31,576 bases of DNA, from positions 1-31,576 of the IMG/VR virus record IMGVR_UViG_3300007351_000592, one strand, 5' to 3'. This document shows positions 4,319 to 13,428 of this stretch, piece after piece. This DNA comes from a virus. How positions within the stretch are numbered: the stretch's first letter is position 1; every line of letters begins with the position of its first letter. The position numbers and the translations under genes are program-made. Below the pieces are notes generated by a model. That model did no database searches and was not told the origin of the DNA. It worked only from the letters and a program-made list of their open reading frames with translations.

Positions 4319-6535
4319 TCACCAGATGTAGTAGCCTGCGTCCTCGTTTTCCATCACACCCGTGTCGAGCGTGATGAATCCGAACTCCTTCTGCGCGTCC
4401 GTGGCGGTCAGGTAATTCGGGTATCCATCCGGAGCAATCAGCGCTAGGCGCCGCGTTGACACTCTCAGGAGCGAGACCTTCAGCGAAAAGTCATCTTGCA
4501 GTTCCCGCTTCACCACCTGGAATATCTCGTTGGTGATGGGGTCCCCGTTGAACTTGACCAGCTCGTCGGTATCCAGTCGCACATGGTCCCCGGTCTTGAT
4601 CGCGAGGTCGCGCAAGGAGAGGGAGAGCGCGATCAGCGGCTGCGCGTCCCGGCTTCTGCGTACCTGCCGCATCCCGAGATTCTTGACATAGGTCTCGGCG
4701 GAATCCTCCTCATTCGTTATCGGGTCGATCCAACGGCAGAAGACCTTCTTTTCGACGACGTCCCCGTACGAGGCTTCCGCATCCGCGTCCACCGCAATGT
4801 CCAGGCGGTCGAAGGCCGCCGGATCGTCCTTTTTCCCGAGAACGGATTTATGCCAGTAGATCAGCATCCGGGTCAGCCGGGATTTTTCGTTGAAATCCAC
4901 GGAGGCCGAGTTGTCGACGATGTTTCCGCCGTCCGTCATCCGGTAGTAGACCCGCCCCGGAGCATTCTGGACGTTGCGCCGAATCGTGATCCGCAAGTCC
5001 TCTCCGACCCACGCCTTCGCGTCGAGGATGTTGGTGATCTCGAAGAACAGTTTGTCGAGGCTCTCCGGCTCGGAGAGCACCGCGCGAAACAATTTATCGT
5101 TCCCGGGAGTCCGTTTCGCCAGTGCGAACGCGGCGAGATCAATGTCCGCATCCGCAATTCCGGCATCCACCCTCAACATCTCCAGGAGGATGTCCCAGGG
5201 ATTCGCCGGTGCGTAGTAGCGGACCGCCTGGACCTTATCCTTCGCATGGTACTCATCCGCCACGGTGCCGAAGGCTCCGCGCGTTAGCGTCTGGAGGGCT
5301 TTCGTCGTGACGTTTATCGTTGCGTAGCCGATGATCTCGTCTTTGATCCGAATGTACCCAGCGGCGGAACCCAACCCCTCAACGCTGGTGAGCGTGATCT
5401 GTCCAGCCTCTACGGCCGACAGGTCCGACGCCAACTTGATATCGAGTTTCGGAGGGACGTCGATTTTGGAGAGGTCTTTCAGCAGATCCGTGGACTCGAA
5501 CGTGAACTCTCCGTTCTGCGTCGTCACGTTCGTCAGTTTCCCAACCCACGTCCTGGTGAACTCCGACTCGGCCATCCCGACTTGGCCCTCGTAAATCTCC
5601 ATCAGGCGGCCCTTGTAATTCGGGTTCCGGGACATGAACCGTTTCCAGTACGAGCGGACGGTGATGGGTCTCGGCAGAGGTGCTGGAGGTGCTGGAACCT
5701 CTGCGCCAACCGTGACACCCTCGGGGAGGTAAAACTCGTCGTTTCCCTCGCCCACCGTTCCCACTTGAGAAACAAAGCTAAGATCAGATTTTAATCTTTG
5801 AACAACACGACATATTCCTGGCTCATATTGATATTCGGAATTATATATGTACGTATCATCGCAGGTGATGTATTTATTATAATTGTTATAAGGATAGCCA
5901 ATGTTTATTTGAGACACATACGATAAATCGGACTTTAATCTTTTAACAATCCGCCTATTGCTTGAATCGCATATGTATATATAAGTATCATCAACTGTTA
6001 CTCCAATAGGAGTCCAGAACTGGTCGTCACCAGAACCATACGTTCCTATTTGCGAGTCATAATCAAGGTTTGATTTTAATCTTTTAACTATTCGATAATC
6101 ATTTCCGTCGCATACATACATATAAGTATCATCAATGGCTACATCGCCAATGCCATAACCCGAGTCTACTTGCGAATCGTAACTGAGATCCGACTTTAGT
6201 CTTTTAACAATCCGACTATTCATCCCATCGCGGACATATATGTAAGTATCATCAACTGCTATACCTGTAGGCCTGTAGAACTGATCGTCGCCTGAACCAT
6301 TTGATCCTATTTGTGAAACGTACGCTAAATCAGAGACATTTCTTTTAACAATACGATGATTATATGTGTCGCATATATATAAATAGACGCCATCAGAAGC
6401 AATACCCGTAGGACGATAGAACTGGTCATCGCCAGAACCTTGAGTACCTATCTGCGATACATACGACAGGTCAGACAATAGTCTCTTTACAATGCGGTGA
6501 TTTCTGTTGTCCGCCACGTAAAGATGGGCGCTCAT
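4319..6535 (-). CDS. Tail hub protein, C-terminal part, fused to an N-terminal NHL-type beta-propeller
   Basis: Residues 1 to about 270 are six propeller blades of 40-48 residues with a repeated core (YIYICD..N.RIVKRLKSDLSYVSQIG..GSGDDQF), typical of NHL repeats. A proline-rich linker (VPAPPAPLPRP) leads into a tail-hub or host-specificity-like region starting near residue 288 (SYWKRFMSRNPNYKGRLMEI). That part includes an IKDEIIGYATI / LTRGAFGTVADEYHAKDKV segment typical of such proteins. It would form the tail tip, with the propeller a candidate receptor-binding or docking module. The propeller DNA is much more AT-rich than the rest. The upstream ORF ends at a TGA 12 nt before this ATG in the same frame, so the two may be one interrupted protein. 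GAGG about 10 nt upstream could allow independent initiation. Confidence 0.72.
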   Translation of the reverse strand: MSAHLYVADNRNHRIVKRLLSDLSYVSQIGTQGSGDDQFYRPTGIASDGVYLYICDTYNHRIVKRNVSDLAYVSQIGSNGSGDDQFYRPTGIAVDDTYIYVRDGMNSRIVKRLKSDLSYDSQVDSGYGIGDVAIDDTYMYVCDGNDYRIVKRLKSNLDYDSQIGTYGSGDDQFWTPIGVTVDDTYIYICDSSNRRIVKRLKSDLSYVSQINIGYPYNNYNKYITCDDTYIYNSEYQYEPGICRVVQRLKSDLSFVSQVGTVGEGNDEFYLPEGVTVGAEVPAPPAPLPRPITVRSYWKRFMSRNPNYKGRLMEIYEGQVGMAESEFTRTWVGKLTNVTTQNGEFTFESTDLLKDLSKIDVPPKLDIKLASDLSAVEAGQITLTSVEGLGSAAGYIRIKDEIIGYATINVTTKALQTLTRGAFGTVADEYHAKDKVQAVRYYAPANPWDILLEMLRVDAGIADADIDLAAFALAKRTPGNDKLFRAVLSEPESLDKLFFEITNILDAKAWVGEDLRITIRRNVQNAPGRVYYRMTDGGNIVDNSASVDFNEKSRLTRMLIYWHKSVLGKKDDPAAFDRLDIAVDADAEASYGDVVEKKVFCRWIDPITNEEDSAETYVKNLGMRQVRRSRDAQPLIALSLSLRDLAIKTGDHVRLDTDELVKFNGDPITNEIFQVVKRELQDDFSLKVSLLRVSTRRLALIAPDGYPNYLTATDAQKEFGFITLDTGVMENEDAGYYIW
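5765..6535 (-). repeat. NHL-type blade repeats, AT-rich
   Basis: Six tandem repeats of about 120-145 nt encode the propeller blades. Recurring DNA includes the stretches encoding YIYICD, RIVKRLKSDL and GSGDDQF. Blades 3 and 5 lack the GSGDDQF element. The segment is rich in A and T (runs such as tataattgttataagg on the plus strand) and contrasts sharply with the GC-rich tail genes on either side, pointing to separate ancestry. Confidence 0.8.
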
Positions 6536-6547
6536 ATTATCTTCGCC

Positions 6548-7456
6548 TCAAATGCGACCAGGTCCTACGATGTACGGATCCGTGTCGATGTCCTGGTCCA
6601 TCTCGTCCACCATGGTGACGGACACCCGGGCATTGACCGTCAGGTTCGTCTTGATCTCCGTAGGGAGCAACTTCACGGATTTTACGTACGGGCGGACACC
6701 CCTGAACGGAAGCGCGGCGTCGACTTCGCTGTACTTGTACGTCTTACCGACATTGTCGAACGCGGGAAGGTATTTGCAGGTCTTCCACGTGTTAAAGCAC
6801 GGCGTCCCTATGGCGAGGCATGGGGAGGTGCCGAACACGTTCCCGCAGTAATCCAGGTGGAGGTAGACCAGCCGGATCGGCTCGTACTTGGCCGGAGCCC
6901 GGACCGCGACGTCCGTGTAGAAACGAATGCCTGTTGCAACGAGATCCCCGCCGCCGTAAACGGCCGGAGGTGCTCTTGCCTCCTTGACCCCATGCCCCAC
7001 CACCGCCCCGCCACCAGGGAGGTATGCGTAGTGAATGCTGCCACCCGTTCGGATGTACGCGATAACAACCGCGCCACCACCGGAAAGGTGTGCCGCGACC
7101 TTCGCCCCTTTCCAGCCCTGCGCCGCGGTGGTCCCGCCACCATGGACGAGGACGGCCCTCCGCGCCCCCGCTCGGCCAGCAAGGACAACAGTCCCGTTCC
7201 CAGAGATGGTCGGGTCTCCCAACCCTCCCTTCGAAACCACGACGACAACAGACCCATTCCCGCTACCTACAGCGTCTCCAAGCGCTCCTTTCGACGCGAC
7301 GGCAACGAGAGATCCCCCGCCGGTCAGTACTGCGGTTTCCTGTCCTCCCATGGATTGAACGACAGTAAGAGATCCTCCTCCAGCAAGGACAGCCGTTTCC
7401 TGCGCCCCCATGCTCCCTGCGACAATAAGAGTTCCGCCGCCGGAGACGTTGTTCAT
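6548..7456 (-). CDS. Tail hub protein, N-terminal part, with glycine-rich 20-residue repeats
   Basis: Residues 4 to about 180 are nine tandem repeats of about 20 residues built on GGGSL.VV.S.G..ETAVL. After them comes a cysteine-rich region (YCGNVFGTSPC and PCFNTWKTC, about 205-230). It resembles the N-terminal portion of phage tail-hub or host-specificity proteins, which usually continues into the region encoded by the next ORF. The protein stops at VGPGRI with a TGA at 6548-6550, and the propeller-hub ORF resumes 12 nt later in the same frame. With the TGA read through, the product would be 1,045 residues. The repeats look like a beta-solenoid or a flexible display region. The gene follows a small tail gene in the operon. 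Confidence 0.68.
   Translation of the reverse strand: MNNVSGGGTLIVAGSMGAQETAVLAGGGSLTVVQSMGGQETAVLTGGGSLVAVASKGALGDAVGSGNGSVVVVVSKGGLGDPTISGNGTVVLAGRAGARRAVLVHGGGTTAAQGWKGAKVAAHLSGGGAVVIAYIRTGGSIHYAYLPGGGAVVGHGVKEARAPPAVYGGGDLVATGIRFYTDVAVRAPAKYEPIRLVYLHLDYCGNVFGTSPCLAIGTPCFNTWKTCKYLPAFDNVGKTYKYSEVDAALPFRGVRPYVKSVKLLPTEIKTNLTVNARVSVTMVDEMDQDIDTDPYIVGPGRI
6950..7447 (-). repeat. Tandem 60-nt coding repeats (glycine-rich)
   Basis: About nine imperfect direct repeats of roughly 60 nt each encode a unit starting GGG or GNG. The two nearest the gene start are the most alike, sharing ETAVL and the SMG motif. Divergence grows toward the 3' end of the gene. Such coding repeats can expand or contract by slippage or recombination without shifting the frame. 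Confidence 0.75.
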
Positions 7457-7468
7457 GACGTTCTCGCC

Positions 7469-7837
7469 CTATGCGTTCAGATCAAGCGTCGCGCTCGTGA
7501 GCGTATAGGTCCCCTGCGAGGCAAAGGTCTCGTCGGTCACATCCGCGTACCCGAGGAACGTCCCGCCGGAGACTGCCGACCAGAAGCCCACGTGAGTGAC
7601 GGTCGTTGATCCCGGGACGTCAAAGACCGGCTGGGTCGATGCGGCAACCTCGCCTCCGGACGCGGCAGCGATCGTGATCCCCTTTCGCGCGTAGGCCGGG
7701 GATCCACCGGTTACCTCATTCGATCCGTCGTCCCCCGGACTCGCCGTGTGCAGAGAAGCGTAGGCGATGGCCACCGTCGGGTTCGTCCCCCGCAAAGCGT
7801 CGAGCATTAGGTTCTTTCCAGCTGTTGAGTACGGCAT
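7469..7837 (-). CDS. Small phage tail protein
   Basis: This 122-residue protein begins MPYSTAGKNLMLDAL, a start common among small tail or fibre-associated proteins of siphoviruses. The rest is beta-rich (ASLHTASPG, PVFDVPGSTTVTHVGFWSA, GTYTLTSATLDLNA). Members of this group usually lie between distal tail and hub genes, as here, and their exact role is not known. AAGGAGG precedes the ATG with good spacing. It has no membrane segment, no signal peptide and no cysteines. It sits 12 nt upstream of the repeat-rich hub gene and is probably co-transcribed with it. Confidence 0.6.
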   Translation of the reverse strand: MPYSTAGKNLMLDALRGTNPTVAIAYASLHTASPGDDGSNEVTGGSPAYARKGITIAAASGGEVAASTQPVFDVPGSTTVTHVGFWSAVSGGTFLGYADVTDETFASQGTYTLTSATLDLNA

Positions 7838-7861: not shown

Positions 7862-8680
7862 TCATTGAACCGGAGGGGGGGGGGGCGGAGCAGGCGGCGT
7901 CTGCCCGACCACCACCGCTTCCCGCACTCCTTCCAGATCCAAGTCGAGGGAATCGTAATAGCTAAGAACGGTCACTTCCGGTTTGTACGTGTACTCCGCC
8001 TTGAACCTGACGAACCGGACGTCCTCCGGGTAATTTTCCAGATCCCACGCCCAGAAGAACGGATGGAGGTCGCTTGCGTAATTGAGCCAGAACGGAAGGA
8101 ACACCGATTCCAGCCAGTTCCTGTCAAGGTACGAGAATCGCGCAGAGATTGAATACGGCTTGTATTTGACGTAATGCGCCAGCAGGTGGCCCGCTTTGCT
8201 GCGCTTGCTGCCCGATTCCATCCCCTCTTCGATCGGCTTAAACGGCCCATCCACCGGCACGGGGAATTCCAACCGGGACCCCAGTACGAGCACGGCGATG
8301 TACGGAAGAGTATCGAGTCCAGGGTCGATCACCACGCGCCAGTACCGAGCGGCGACGGAGGGGAACACTTTCAGGATGGCAATGTCGCTTGTCGGAGAAA
8401 ACGGCTCCAACTGCTGCGTCCATGTGTCCCCATCGTCGGAAGATTCGACGGATATATCCGCCTGCACCGTTCCCAGGTTATGCCCGATGATCCCGAGGGT
8501 ATCCGCGCTTTTGGCGGCCCCGCAATCTACGGTGATGTCCTCGTACCCCGTCTCTCCCGCCTGCCAGAAGGTGAAGGTCTTTAAATCCACGACGTTCAAC
8601 GCGCTAAATCCCGCCGAGGTGTCGGTCGCCATGGGAATGCCGTCCAGGAACCGGTTGTCGTAGAGGATCATCGGGTTCAT
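7862..8680 (-). CDS. Distal tail-type protein with discoidin-like domain
   Basis: This 272-residue protein opens with MNPMILYDNRFLDG. A discoidin (F5/8 type C)-like fold follows at about 20-145, with landmarks FWQAGETGYEDITVDCG, LGIIGHNLG and ARYWRVVID. A second region (LLAHYVKYKPYSISARF, LDRNWLESVFLPFW) resembles structural tail proteins that follow the tape measure. It is probably part of the tail tip or distal tail ring. The ATG overlaps the stop of the tape-measure gene (ATGA), which implies translational coupling. The C-terminus is a run of prolines encoded by an 11-base C tract on the coding strand, a slippage-prone site next to the stop codon. Confidence 0.62.
   Translation of the reverse strand: MNPMILYDNRFLDGIPMATDTSAGFSALNVVDLKTFTFWQAGETGYEDITVDCGAAKSADTLGIIGHNLGTVQADISVESSDDGDTWTQQLEPFSPTSDIAILKVFPSVAARYWRVVIDPGLDTLPYIAVLVLGSRLEFPVPVDGPFKPIEEGMESGSKRSKAGHLLAHYVKYKPYSISARFSYLDRNWLESVFLPFWLNYASDLHPFFWAWDLENYPEDVRFVRFKAEYTYKPEVTVLSYYDSLDLDLEGVREAVVVGQTPPAPPPPPPVQ
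7875..7885. repeat. 11-base poly-G/poly-C tract inside the distal tail gene
   Basis: Eleven G in a row on the plus strand encode the proline tail of the distal tail protein. One-base changes would replace the last two residues with a short frame-shifted tail, or extend reading into the following gene's leader. Tracts of this length are prone to replication slippage and to sequencing error. Confidence 0.85.
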
Positions 8681-11076
8681 GCGACTCCGTCTCCGATCGC
8701 CTTCGTGATCGCCGGGACAAGCTCCCGGGCGAATTTATCGTGATCCACGACGTTGCCGTAGATGTGGATGTTGACGGTGGGAGAACTGACGGGCTCCTGC
8801 GTCGCGGGAGCAGGGGCGGAAGGGACGGATGGAGCGCCACCGCCGAATCCGCCGGTTGATGCTGATACCGATGCCGAACCACCGCCTGGTTTCATGGATG
8901 AAATGGCGGAGACCTGCGCCATGCCGAATGCGATCGCCGCAGCGGCAGCCGCCGCCCCAAGGAACGGTCCGACATATGGAATGGACGCCAGCGCGTTGTA
9001 GGCACCAACGGCGGCGGAGTACGTGTTCATGATCGTTTCGCCGATTCGAAACGCCTTCATCGCTTCGAACGCCGCGCCGCCCTGTTTCCCCTGCATGTTG
9101 TAGAGAGAGGTGGCAAGCGATCCCAGCATCCCGAAGGTAGCCGCGGTCATCGCCACCTTCTGCTGATTGACCATCGCTTCTTGCTGGAGGTCGTACTCCC
9201 GATAGGCGTCCTTGATCTGCTGTTCGGACGCTCCGATCTCTTCGAGGTACATGATCTTCTGGTCCTGAAGATCCGACCAGCGCTTGAAATCCTTGGTGTA
9301 CGGATCCTCCCCGGCGTTGATGGCGGAGACCACGCCGAGATTCTGGCCGAACTCGCTCCCGCCGATCTTGCCGAACGCCTCCTGCGTCCTGGCGGTCTGC
9401 TGCTCGAAAAGCAGATCCCGCTGCTCCCGCATGAGATCCGCGATTTTCGCTTCCACTTCCACCCGCCGAGCGTCTATTTCAAACGCCTCCGTCGCCTTGC
9501 TCACCGCGATCTGATCCTGTAGAACCGCTTCCTTGCCGAGGATTTCCAGAAGCTGCGCGTTTGTCCCTACAAACTCTCCCTCGATGGAGAGAGCCTCCGC
9601 CGCCAGCCAGTTCCGCTGCCGCTGGATCTCGAGCAGTGCGCGATCCGATGCGGATCGCTCCGCGATTCCTTGCATCTCACTGGTATGGCCAGACTTGATA
9701 GCCGCCGCGTTTAACTCCTGCCTAGCCCGGATGCGCTGCTCCTCGGCATCAAGGGACGCTTTACCGATCGCCTGCGCGGATTCGAGTTTCCTTTTCTGCG
9801 TCTCCTCGTGCATCTTCAATTCGATGCCGGATATTTTTAAGGTCCGGGCGATTTCCGCCTCGTCCCACTTCGCCGAGTAGTCGGCGTACATGGCGTCGTA
9901 ATAGATCTTTGCGGCGTGAAGGTCGTCTAACTTCTTCTTCTCGTCGTCGAACCATTTGTTGAGCCTTACGAACTCCCGGTCGTATTCGCCCGCGGAGGCA
10001 AGATCCTTCTCCTCGATGTACTTCCGGTAGAGTTCCGTGAGTTGTTCGAGTTGCTTTCGATTCCCGTCGCCCCCCAACGCGGGAAGAGGAGCGCCGCCCC
10101 CCACCTTTCCCATCTCCCCGAGGCTTGCAAGCGCACCCTTTATGTTTCCCAGCGCGTCCACCGCAGACTGTGCCGCGTTGCCGTAGGCCTTATCCGCCTT
10201 CTTCGCCCATCGCTCGGTAGCGCCCTCGGTTACGCCCAGCCAGTCGGTGACTCGCGCTCCCTCGGAGACAAGCGTGTCGAAGGCCCCCGCCAGACCGTAT
10301 ACCAACGTCATGGCGACCTGGAAAATCGCCATAAAGGGCTGGCCGATGATCAGGAGAAGAGATCCGACGAAATACTTCATCCGCTCGACGGAGTTGTTGA
10401 ACCGCTCCATCCGGTCGGCCGCGGAGTCCAGATCGGGTCCGAGTGTCGCCTGCACCTGCGCCATGCGCTCGGCCACGATGGTGTACATCGCCTGGGCTTT
10501 CTCGGCTTTGCTCATCGTGTCGGCGTATTTTCCGTACTTCGCCTCCAGGTCGACGATGCCGACCAGGGCCTTCAACCCCCGCTCCCGGCCAGTTGCGATC
10601 GACTGGGAGAGCATCTCGAACGCATCGGCGGTCGATACGGTTCCGGCCTTGATATGCGATAGCGACACCGACCACGAGGCGATCTGCGCGAGTTGTTCCG
10701 GCCCGAGGCCCTTCATAAGAGCGTCTCCCGCGACCTTGGCGGCGGCCCCCATCCCGATCAGACCTTTCGATTCCTGCTCGATCCTCCCGACGAGATCCTG
10801 CGCCGTCATCCCGTACTGCCGGGTCAGGGCATCAAGCGAGGCCATCGCCTCGTCGGTCTGCGCGGCTTTCTCCATCAGTCCCCATATCGACTGGAACGCC
10901 CTGACGGCGGCGTAGATCCCGACCGACACCTCGGCCCAGTGGGATTTAAGGCGCTGGGTTAAGGACTGCGTGCGCCCCCCCAGCTTCTCCGTCTCGTCTC
11001 CGACCATCCGGATGCCGGTGACAGCGCCGGTTGGGTCGGCGGTGATGACGACACTTATCCTGTTCTCATTGGCCAT
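8677..11076 (-). CDS. Phage tail tape measure protein
   Basis: This is the longest phage gene here, at 799 residues. It is largely alpha-helical, with extended coiled-coil stretches (about 350-630) and hydrophobic segments near 235-270 and 685-735. Its N-terminus (VVITADPTGAVTGIRMVGDE) resembles tape measure proteins that begin with a short beta segment before long helices. A glycine/alanine-rich region lies just before the C-terminus. Tape measures set tail length and help DNA cross the host envelope. The length suggests a tail of roughly 110-120 nm on the usual 1.5 angstroms per residue rule (inference). It follows the frameshifting chaperone gene, as expected, and its ATG overlaps the frameshift product by 11 nt. 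Confidence 0.9.
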   Translation of the reverse strand: MANENRISVVITADPTGAVTGIRMVGDETEKLGGRTQSLTQRLKSHWAEVSVGIYAAVRAFQSIWGLMEKAAQTDEAMASLDALTRQYGMTAQDLVGRIEQESKGLIGMGAAAKVAGDALMKGLGPEQLAQIASWSVSLSHIKAGTVSTADAFEMLSQSIATGRERGLKALVGIVDLEAKYGKYADTMSKAEKAQAMYTIVAERMAQVQATLGPDLDSAADRMERFNNSVERMKYFVGSLLLIIGQPFMAIFQVAMTLVYGLAGAFDTLVSEGARVTDWLGVTEGATERWAKKADKAYGNAAQSAVDALGNIKGALASLGEMGKVGGGAPLPALGGDGNRKQLEQLTELYRKYIEEKDLASAGEYDREFVRLNKWFDDEKKKLDDLHAAKIYYDAMYADYSAKWDEAEIARTLKISGIELKMHEETQKRKLESAQAIGKASLDAEEQRIRARQELNAAAIKSGHTSEMQGIAERSASDRALLEIQRQRNWLAAEALSIEGEFVGTNAQLLEILGKEAVLQDQIAVSKATEAFEIDARRVEVEAKIADLMREQRDLLFEQQTARTQEAFGKIGGSEFGQNLGVVSAINAGEDPYTKDFKRWSDLQDQKIMYLEEIGASEQQIKDAYREYDLQQEAMVNQQKVAMTAATFGMLGSLATSLYNMQGKQGGAAFEAMKAFRIGETIMNTYSAAVGAYNALASIPYVGPFLGAAAAAAAIAFGMAQVSAISSMKPGGGSASVSASTGGFGGGAPSVPSAPAPATQEPVSSPTVNIHIYGNVVDHDKFARELVPAITKAIGDGVA

Positions 11077-11754
11077 CGGGCACCTTCGGAGTTTCCAATT
11101 CGCGCTTCATCGCACCGAGATCCAGCCATTCTTCGATCGAAAGGTCATCCTGACGAAAGGGGAACCCGGCCTGCTGCAGGGAGAACAGAAACCAGATATG
11201 GCTGAACCACGCAGACGGGATATACGGTTCCCGGTGCTTGCACCTCGCGCATATTTCCTGCAGATGCGGGCCGCTGCCTTTGGCGCATCCCTTTTTGCGC
11301 TCCGGGGTGCAGTTCTCCCGAAGGGCCTTCAGCTCTTCCCCAAAGGGACGATCTCTTCCGCCTCCTCGCCGAACTCGACATCATCCGCGTTCTGCCCGGA
11401 CCGTATCCCGTCGAAGACGATATGCGCGACGGTCGTCACGATGTCGGCGGCGGTTTCCTTCAATAACGCCTTCCAGTCCTCCCGGTAGTGCGGAGAATCC
11501 GGATCAGCGGAGATCGGCTGCCCGTCGTACCCAAACGCCCCTTCCTCGAATCCCGTGAGGATCTCCAGGCCGAATTTGAGTGCCGGATCGAAGTTGTCGA
11601 CCACGACCTTGTTCCCCTTCCGGCGGATCGACTGCTGGCGGTACGATTTCACCTGGCTGGTTGTGGGCGTCGCATAGAAGACGCCGATCTGCGTTCCGGA
11701 TAACGTGTCATCCAGGACGAGCTTGTTCCGGTCGTCTTTTTTAAGGTCTCTCAT
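11066..11754 (-). CDS. Tail assembly chaperone, -1 frameshift product (G-T fusion)
   Basis: A minus-one slip at CCCTTTG (11341-11347) would join the first 138 codons of the chaperone gene to a 91-codon extension in another frame, giving 229 residues. The extension has no good start codon of its own and is protein-like: EELKALRENCTPERKKGC, then ICARCKHREPYIPSAWFS, then FPFRQDDLSIEEWLDLG. It contains paired cysteines (including CARC) that may bind metal. It ends at 11066, overlapping the tape-measure start. In lambda and many other siphoviruses the equivalent G and G-T proteins coat the tape measure during tail assembly. The slippery site and open frame are seen; the frameshifting itself is inferred. 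Confidence 0.78.
11329..11754 (-). CDS. Tail assembly chaperone, zero-frame product (G-like)
   Basis: This 141-residue acidic protein lies between the major tail protein and the tape measure, the conserved position of tail assembly chaperones. GGAGG precedes the ATG. Its N-terminus is rich in lysine and aspartate (MRDLKKDDRNKLVLDD), the middle holds VVVDNFDPALKFGLEILTGF, and it ends EEAEEIVPLGKS shortly after the slippery site. Most ribosomes would make this product, and a minority would make the extended form. It is expected to help assemble the tail and to be absent from the finished virion. The sequence itself matches no family I can name; the call rests on position and on the frameshift. 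Confidence 0.75.
   Translation of the reverse strand: MRDLKKDDRNKLVLDDTLSGTQIGVFYATPTTSQVKSYRQQSIRRKGNKVVVDNFDPALKFGLEILTGFEEGAFGYDGQPISADPDSPHYREDWKALLKETAADIVTTVAHIVFDGIRSGQNADDVEFGEEAEEIVPLGKS
11341..11347 (-). promoter_or_regulatory. Slippery heptamer CCCTTTG for programmed -1 frameshift
   Basis: In the zero frame this reads C-CCT-TTG, which fits the X-XXY-YYZ pattern. It re-pairs after a one-base backward slip as CCC-TTT. It lies 10 nt before the zero-frame TGA, and the -1 frame stays open for 91 codons afterwards. Confidence 0.78.
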
Positions 11755-13123: not shown

Positions 13124-13428
13124 GGGTATCTCTTCCCGAGGAGGAGCGTGGTCCAGCCGGTCTCGTCCGGCTGGATTTTGAGAACGCGGTACGCCACGCC
13201 GCCTACCTCCAGCGTGTCGCCGTTTTTCACGCCTGCGATATCGGAGGACTTGCACCCCGCCTGCCCGATGATCCCCTGCGGCACGATGTCTCCGCCAAGC
13301 GATACGTCTCCCACCTCGAGGGCGAAGCAGGTACGGATCTGCTTGGACGATCCGCCCGCGGGGGTGAAGAGCGCGGTCGTGGAGAGGAACTCATCGGTCA
13401 GAAAGTCCGTTACCCAGTCGGCCATCAT
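13120..13428 (-). CDS. Head-tail joining protein-like
   Basis: This 102-residue beta-rich protein has the landmarks VSLGGDIVPQGIIG, VKNGDTLEVGGVAYRVLKIQPD and TTLLLGKRYP. The phrase G(D/V)xLxVxGxxYxVxxxxPD is typical of small head-tail joining or attachment proteins (lambda gpFII-like, HK97-type stoppers). These close the head after packaging and provide the tail docking site. Its place between capsid and tail terminator agrees. Two ATGs in tandem (13428 and 13425) could start it; AGGA lies a few bases upstream. Overlap with the tail terminator start is four bases. Confidence 0.65.
   Translation of the reverse strand: MMADWVTDFLTDEFLSTTALFTPAGGSSKQIRTCFALEVGDVSLGGDIVPQGIIGQAGCKSSDIAGVKNGDTLEVGGVAYRVLKIQPDETGWTTLLLGKRYP

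What the first reader, a model, noticed from the sequence alone, without database searches (positions are those of the whole stretch)
6536..6550. A tail-hub protein split by one in-frame TGA, with a propeller right after it
The ORFs 6548-7456 and 4319-6535 are in the same frame, separated by one TGA plus the codons GGC GAA GAT AAT. The first ORF carries the cysteine-rich N-terminal part typical of tail-hub proteins; the second carries the remainder, after a propeller. Either the TGA is read through to make a 1,045-residue tip protein, or the phage uses two proteins (GAGG 10 nt upstream supports this), or it is a recent nonsense mutation. Regulated readthrough in a phage receptor module would be unusual.
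Basis: partly seen in the sequence, partly recalled or inferred. Interest (0 to 1): 0.75.

Follow-up and report, generated by a model that had tools for sequence, protein, structure and literature searches.

The report
Split phage tail hub, swappable propeller
A phage tail-tip protein that is one chain in about 150 relatives is here made from two ordinary neighbouring genes, and the second gene carries a propeller-shaped domain at the break point that close relatives have swapped for a different kind; the stop codon is a normal stop and is not read through.

Summary
The sequence is as described: ORF1 7456-6548(-), TGA, 12 nt, ORF2 6535-4319(-), same frame. Readthrough is not supported. In close relatives (flanks 82-92% identical in DNA) ORF1 ends in TGA at the same place, but ORF2 starts 12 nt (L005), 23 nt (L006) or 43 nt (L004) later; in the last two it lies in another frame, and readthrough would add only 1 or 38 residues. 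Each ORF2 has its own Shine-Dalgarno-like leader, and a same-frame 12-nt spacer also precedes ORF1. Both halves are under purifying selection (dN/dS about 0.1), so this is not decay.

The two halves form one single-chain tail hub (phrog_11439; predicted fold closest to T5 pb3) in 166 locus records from three searches. Here the hub is cut in the linker between its N-terminal domain and body, giving a two-gene layout like lambda gpL/gpJ. ORF2 begins with an AT-rich six-bladed NHL propeller; two relatives carry an unrelated Kelch propeller at that position. The propeller is probably an exchangeable receptor-binding module (inferred). Related NHL propellers occur in other phage proteins, at least three in tail-tip operons. 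New variant of a known kind; the sample of splits is small (four contigs).

The parts
6548..7456 (-). ORF1, 302 aa: Gly-rich repeats (about residues 1-190) then the Cys-rich hub N-terminal domain (about 190-302)
   Evidence: phrog_11439 positions 7-117, E=8.7e-8; family alignment A1; dN/dS 0.10-0.12 against three relatives for the Cys-rich part
6548..6550 (-). TGA stop codon of ORF1 (ordinary stop)
   Evidence: also TGA in L004, L005 and L006, with different downstream frames
6536..6547 (-). 12-nt spacer GGCGAAGATAAT; the Shine-Dalgarno-like GAGG overlaps the stop (TGAGG)
   Evidence: compare the ORF1 leader TAG-GGCGAGAACGTC-ATG and L005 TGA-GGCGACGATCAT-ATG
4319..6535 (-). ORF2, 738 aa: N-terminal propeller plus hub body
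5666..6535 (-). Exchangeable N-terminal module of ORF2: six-bladed NHL propeller and short linker, AT-rich
   Evidence: Pfam NHL; 6 blades by HMM; closest solved folds are NHL domains, TM to target about 0.7; GC 0.41; replaced by a Kelch propeller in L006 and L004
4322..5665 (-). Hub body, 448 aa
   Evidence: phrog_11439 positions 125-508, E=3.9e-36; 92-93% identical to L005 and L006; dN/dS 0.11-0.14
7469..7837 (-). Gp80-like / phrog_240 gene just upstream of ORF1; its stop is also followed by a same-frame 12-nt spacer (context)
7862..8680 (-). phrog_11633 protein with F5/8-type-C-like domain; probable distal tail protein (context)
   Evidence: same place in GenBank relatives
8677..11076 (-). 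Tail tape measure protein (context)

Best explanation
This is a two-gene tail hub. An ancestral single-chain, T5 pb3-like hub was divided in the short linker between its N-terminal domain (now ORF1) and its body (now ORF2). The TGA is a normal stop and ORF2 is started at its own ribosome-binding site, perhaps by translational coupling. The two chains are inferred to assemble into one hub at the tail tip, as the separate gpL and gpJ chains do in lambda. The break gave the body a free N-terminus, which carries a beta-propeller that faces the cell and probably binds a receptor. The propeller is exchanged as a unit by recombination in the conserved flanks: NHL in this phage and L005, Kelch in L006 and L004. 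Shown here: separate genes, out-of-frame starts in relatives, conserved halves, propeller replacement at the break, one-chain state in distant relatives. Inferred: co-assembly, exposure, receptor binding, direction of change (one chain to two).
For: Relatives: L005 TGA+12 nt in frame, L006 TGA+23 nt and L004 TGA+43 nt out of frame; readthrough there would add 1 and 38 residues. Shine-Dalgarno-like leaders before each ORF2. One chain in 87 loci of the first survey (77 IMG/VR in 29 clusters at 80%, 10 GenBank records), with the linker only 9-33 nt in 86 and 75 nt in one, and in all 79 loci of a second scan, at least five of them repeats. Selection: dN/dS 0.06-0.14 for the N-domain and 0.11-0.14 for the body. 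DNA identity between the window and L006 stops at window 6569 and resumes at 5671, at 83% and 92%. Kelch identified by Pfam in L006, L004 90% identical to it. Model of the one-chain homologue (pLDDT 86, pTM 0.82) is closest to T5 pb3, then other hubs incl. JBD30 and lambda gpJ. Fused window model: propeller well predicted, but residues 286-308 (break) and 588-601 (linker) under pLDDT 50. Related NHL propellers in tail-tip operons of L111, L112, L114. Literature: HDI in gpL and HDII-IV in gpJ in lambda (PMC10721106); the place where the chain is divided is a focus of hypervariability (PMC13243795).
Against: Only four contigs show the split, and L004 ends inside its Kelch domain. No expression, proteomic or binding data. 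In the NHL pair the frame is kept, so readthrough there is not excluded by frame alone. The fused model has pTM 0.48, so packing of the N-domain on the body is not shown for this phage. The Cys motif lies near the start of the N-domain, whereas in lambda gpL the Fe-S domain follows HDI, so the match to gpL is by gene layout and Cys spacing, not by proven homology.
Confidence: 0.82

Rival explanations
1. Programmed readthrough of the TGA makes some 1,045-residue fused tip protein besides the short ORF1 product.
For: The two ORFs share a frame in the window and in L005 with the same 12-nt spacing.
Against: L006 and L004 carry the same pair of proteins in different frames, so no fused product is possible there. 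ORF2 has its own start site everywhere. The identical 12-nt same-frame layout also precedes ORF1, so it reflects gene spacing.
Confidence: 0.03
2. A recent nonsense mutation has broken a working one-chain gene.
For: All distant homologues are one chain.
Against: The TGA is at the same place in four contigs with synonymous divergence of about 0.3-0.5, both halves stay under purifying selection, and new start sites exist. The break coincides with a propeller insertion of about 870 nt, not a point change.
Confidence: 0.02
3. Two proteins as proposed, but the propeller is not a receptor binder: it is structural, binds another tail protein, or blocks binding until contact.
For: No binding data. Propellers in phage tails can be structural (general knowledge).
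Against: The propeller is the fastest-changing part and is replaced by an unrelated fold while its hub partners stay 90% identical, which fits an outward-facing adhesin better than an internal part.
Confidence: 0.12
4. The stop is an assembly or sequencing error.
For: Metagenomic contig.
Against: Three independent contigs from other samples show the stop in the same position.
Confidence: 0.01

Closest known systems
T5 pb3 and other single-chain siphophage baseplate hub proteins (phrog_11439 family, e.g. in Oceanospirillum phage vB_OliS_GJ44, Idiomarinaceae phage 1N2-2, Marinomonas phage P12026)
   Same: Same order of N-terminal domain and body; sequence profile covers both ORFs; best solved-structure match of the one-chain homologue is T5 pb3.
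   Different: One chain there; here cut in the linker, with a propeller on the second chain and Gly-rich repeats before the first.
Lambda gpL/gpJ, RcGTA gp13/gp15 and JBD30 gp50/gp53 two-chain hubs
   Same: Hub built from an upstream small chain with a C-x8-C-xn-C-x6-C motif (lambda, JBD30) and a downstream body chain; extra domains at the N-terminus of the body chain (PMC10721106, PMC11445458, PMC13243795).
   Different: Those are deep, old divisions with other genes between the two; here the pair is adjacent, the division is seen only in one close group, and the extra domain is a whole propeller. The Cys motif sits before, not after, most of the N-domain strands.
Phage phi11 receptor-binding protein (S. 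aureus), with a beta-propeller
   Same: A propeller in a phage host-recognition device (PMC4901313, seen as a search result; propeller role from general knowledge).
   Different: Separate receptor-binding protein, not fused to the hub; only the search listing was consulted, the paper was not read.

Membership tests
phrog_11439 / T5 pb3-like tail hub | Sequence profile match over N-domain and body | tested here: met
   (ORF1 7-117, ORF2 125-508 of 775)
phrog_11439 / T5 pb3-like tail hub | Hub fold | tested here: met
   one-chain homologue L021: T5 pb3 best solved match, E=1.7e-13, TM 0.51 to query; tested on the homologue, not on the window pair
phrog_11439 / T5 pb3-like tail hub | Encoded as a single chain | tested here: not met
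   split in window, L005, L006 (complete) and L004 (partial)
phrog_11439 / T5 pb3-like tail hub | Gene order tape measure, phrog_11633 protein, hub | tested here: met
   a gp80-like gene is extra in the window
lambda gpL/gpJ-type two-chain hub | N-domain and body on separate chains | tested here: met
lambda gpL/gpJ-type two-chain hub | Four cysteines for a [4Fe-4S] cluster | tested here: inconclusive
   C-x8-C-x6-C-x6-C; lambda x8/x22/x6 (PMC10721106), JBD30 x8/x81/x6 (PMC11445458); cluster itself not testable, position relative to HDI differs; low model confidence there (residues 21-40)
NHL-repeat beta-propeller | NHL repeats forming six blades | tested here: met
   Pfam 47.2 bits against cut-off 20, six blades, NHL domains as best structural matches
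Programmed stop-codon readthrough | Frame continuity kept across relatives | tested here: not met
   out of frame in L004 and L006
Phage receptor-binding protein | Binds the host surface | not testable with these tools
   inferred from position and exchange only

The most novel reading that the evidence does not exclude
The linker between hub N-domain and body is a site where a one-chain hub was split recently so that whole propeller adhesins can be exchanged as N-terminal cassettes of the body chain, giving the phage a receptor-switching tail tip; the NHL-propeller tail-tip genes in L112 and L114 would be a parallel case.
Probability: 0.4. Interest if true: 0.6.

Novelty: new variant of a known kind. 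Interest (0 to 1): 0.45.

Why it matters
It catches a step between the two known hub layouts, one chain (T5) and two chains (lambda, RcGTA), within a group of phages whose halves are still about 90% identical. It also ties the break to the arrival and exchange of a probable adhesin, which fits the published view that the divided place of the hub is a focus of variation. It removes a false lead: there is no sign of regulated readthrough here.

Tried and rejected
Readthrough: rejected on frame and spacing in relatives. Nonsense mutation or pseudogene: rejected on shared position and selection. Sequence-profile search of solved structures with the hub alignment: no hit, so fold comparison was used. 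Genome collection: no relative of the hub body, so host and prophage state are unknown; alignment-based scans that could not be started for lack of conserved stretches. GenBank phages: no hit to the propeller of this phage. Whether the propeller ORF of L114 and the next gene (phrog_8917) form a second split hub: no informative relatives were found among GenBank phages and the hub HMM does not match them, so left open. Fused structure prediction does not show how ORF1 packs on ORF2 (pTM 0.48).

Full report
Observation. The described feature is real. On the minus strand ORF1 (7456-6548) ends in TGA, twelve bases follow (GGCGAAGATAAT) and ORF2 starts at 6535 in the same frame. The window is a 31.6-kb virus record with tape measure, tail terminator, terminase, primase and helicase genes, so it is a siphophage-like genome.

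The two ORFs are one known protein in two pieces. PHROG family phrog_11439 matches ORF1 at profile positions 7-117 and ORF2 at positions 125-508. In GenBank phages with this protein it is a single gene behind the tape measure and one further gene, which in the window corresponds to 7862-8680. Alignments put the break in the loop after the conserved DPY and before the conserved FW(S/T)KW. In 87 loci of the first survey both parts lie in one open frame. The linker is 18-33 nt in 85 of them; the other two values are 9 and 75 nt. All 79 loci of a second scan, at least five of them repeats, are also contiguous. The scans were seeded on the body side of the break, so split genes would have been found.

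The stop is ordinary. Three independent contigs carry close relatives. L005 has TGA, 12 nt, ATG, in frame. L006 has TGA, 23 nt, ATG, out of frame. L004 has TGA, 43 nt, ATG, out of frame. If the TGA were read through, L006 would gain one residue and L004 thirty-eight. Each ORF2 has a Shine-Dalgarno-like leader. The layout 'stop, 12 nt, ATG, same frame' also occurs one gene upstream (TAG-GGCGAGAACGTC-ATG before ORF1), and six of eight checked junctions in the operon share a frame. Both halves are under purifying selection, with dN/dS of 0.06-0.14 for the N-domain and 0.11-0.14 for the body. This excludes decay.

What changes is the propeller. In the window and L005 the N-terminal part of ORF2 is a six-bladed NHL propeller, and the model's closest solved structures are NHL domains. 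In L006 the same place holds a Kelch propeller, and L004 has a 90% identical Kelch start. DNA identity between the window and L006 runs up to window 6569, stops, and resumes at 5671. The module's GC is 0.41 (window), 0.47 (L005) and 0.51 (Kelch) against 0.59 for the flanking hub parts. This is exchange of a whole domain between closely related phages.

The NHL propeller type is shared with other phages. A blade profile found 18 further viral loci and 5 contigs of genome assemblies. In several the propeller is richer in AT than its surroundings, for example L115 with 0.37 GC against 0.57. In L111, L112 and L114 it lies in the tail-tip operon, behind tape measure and a phrog_8610 gene; the window's 7862-8680 gene also matches phrog_8610 weakly.

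Structure and mechanism. The one-chain homologue L021 folds with good confidence (pLDDT 86, pTM 0.82), and its best solved match is the T5 hub pb3, followed by other hubs including JBD30 and lambda gpJ. The tool gives no residue ranges, so placing ORF1 on hub domain I is inference. In lambda, domain I is in gpL and domains II-IV in gpJ; in T5 all are in one chain (PMC10721106). The window pair is therefore laid out like lambda, although its family is laid out like T5. A recent paper notes that the place where the chain is divided is a focus of hypervariability, with N-terminal extensions on gpJ, presumably close to the cell wall (PMC13243795). A propeller on the N-terminus of the body chain fits this and suggests receptor binding. 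The cysteines of ORF1 follow C-x8-C-x6-C-x6-C. Lambda gpL has x8, x22, x6 (PMC10721106) and JBD30 gp50 x8, x81, x6 (PMC11445458). The middle spacing also varies inside this family: L134 has about 245 extra residues there and L147 about 75. The motif sits earlier in the domain than in gpL, so homology is not claimed.

Limits. Four contigs show the split. No host is known. There are no expression or binding data. The direction from one chain to two is inferred from the spread of the one-chain form; no rooted tree was made.

Verdict. The finding is a two-gene tail hub with an exchangeable propeller at the break point, a new variant of a known kind of structure.

Noticed in passing
window 11329-11754(-) and about 11340-11077(-): The 141-aa gene before the tape measure ends ...VPLGKS*; a -1 shift at TTTGGGGAAG would continue into a long open frame (EELKALRENCTPERKKGC...), as in the lambda G/GT tail assembly chaperones. 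A real recoding site may therefore lie in this operon.
   Followed up: partly
window 7456-6900(-) and L005:9702-9845: The Gly-rich repeats at the start of ORF1 vary in number (ORF1 302, 301, 282, 261 aa in window, L004, L005, L006) and similar repeats recur between propeller and hub body in L005 ORF2 (blastp E=5e-13).
   Followed up: partly
L134:3935-6493: A one-chain hub homologue has about 245 extra residues, in frame, between the two cysteine pairs of the N-domain; L147 has about 75.
   Followed up: partly
L071:6232-6699 and L087: One-chain hub homologues with an insertion of about 470 nt inside the body domain.
   Followed up: no
L101-L123: A family of NHL ('RIVKR') propellers of about 47-residue blades, with 2 to 12 blades, spread over unrelated phage proteins and some genome-assembly contigs, often richer in AT than the surroundings.
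   Followed up: partly
window near 13425(-): L004 and L006 hold several hundred extra bases here relative to the window (L004 1168 to 2032; L006 1004 to 1798), so a gene or segment is missing from the window or gained there.
   Followed up: no
L009:901-2811 (Microcystis phage Mel-JY03): The gene in the tape-measure position is annotated 'NAD-dependent DNA ligase', probably a misannotation.
   Followed up: no
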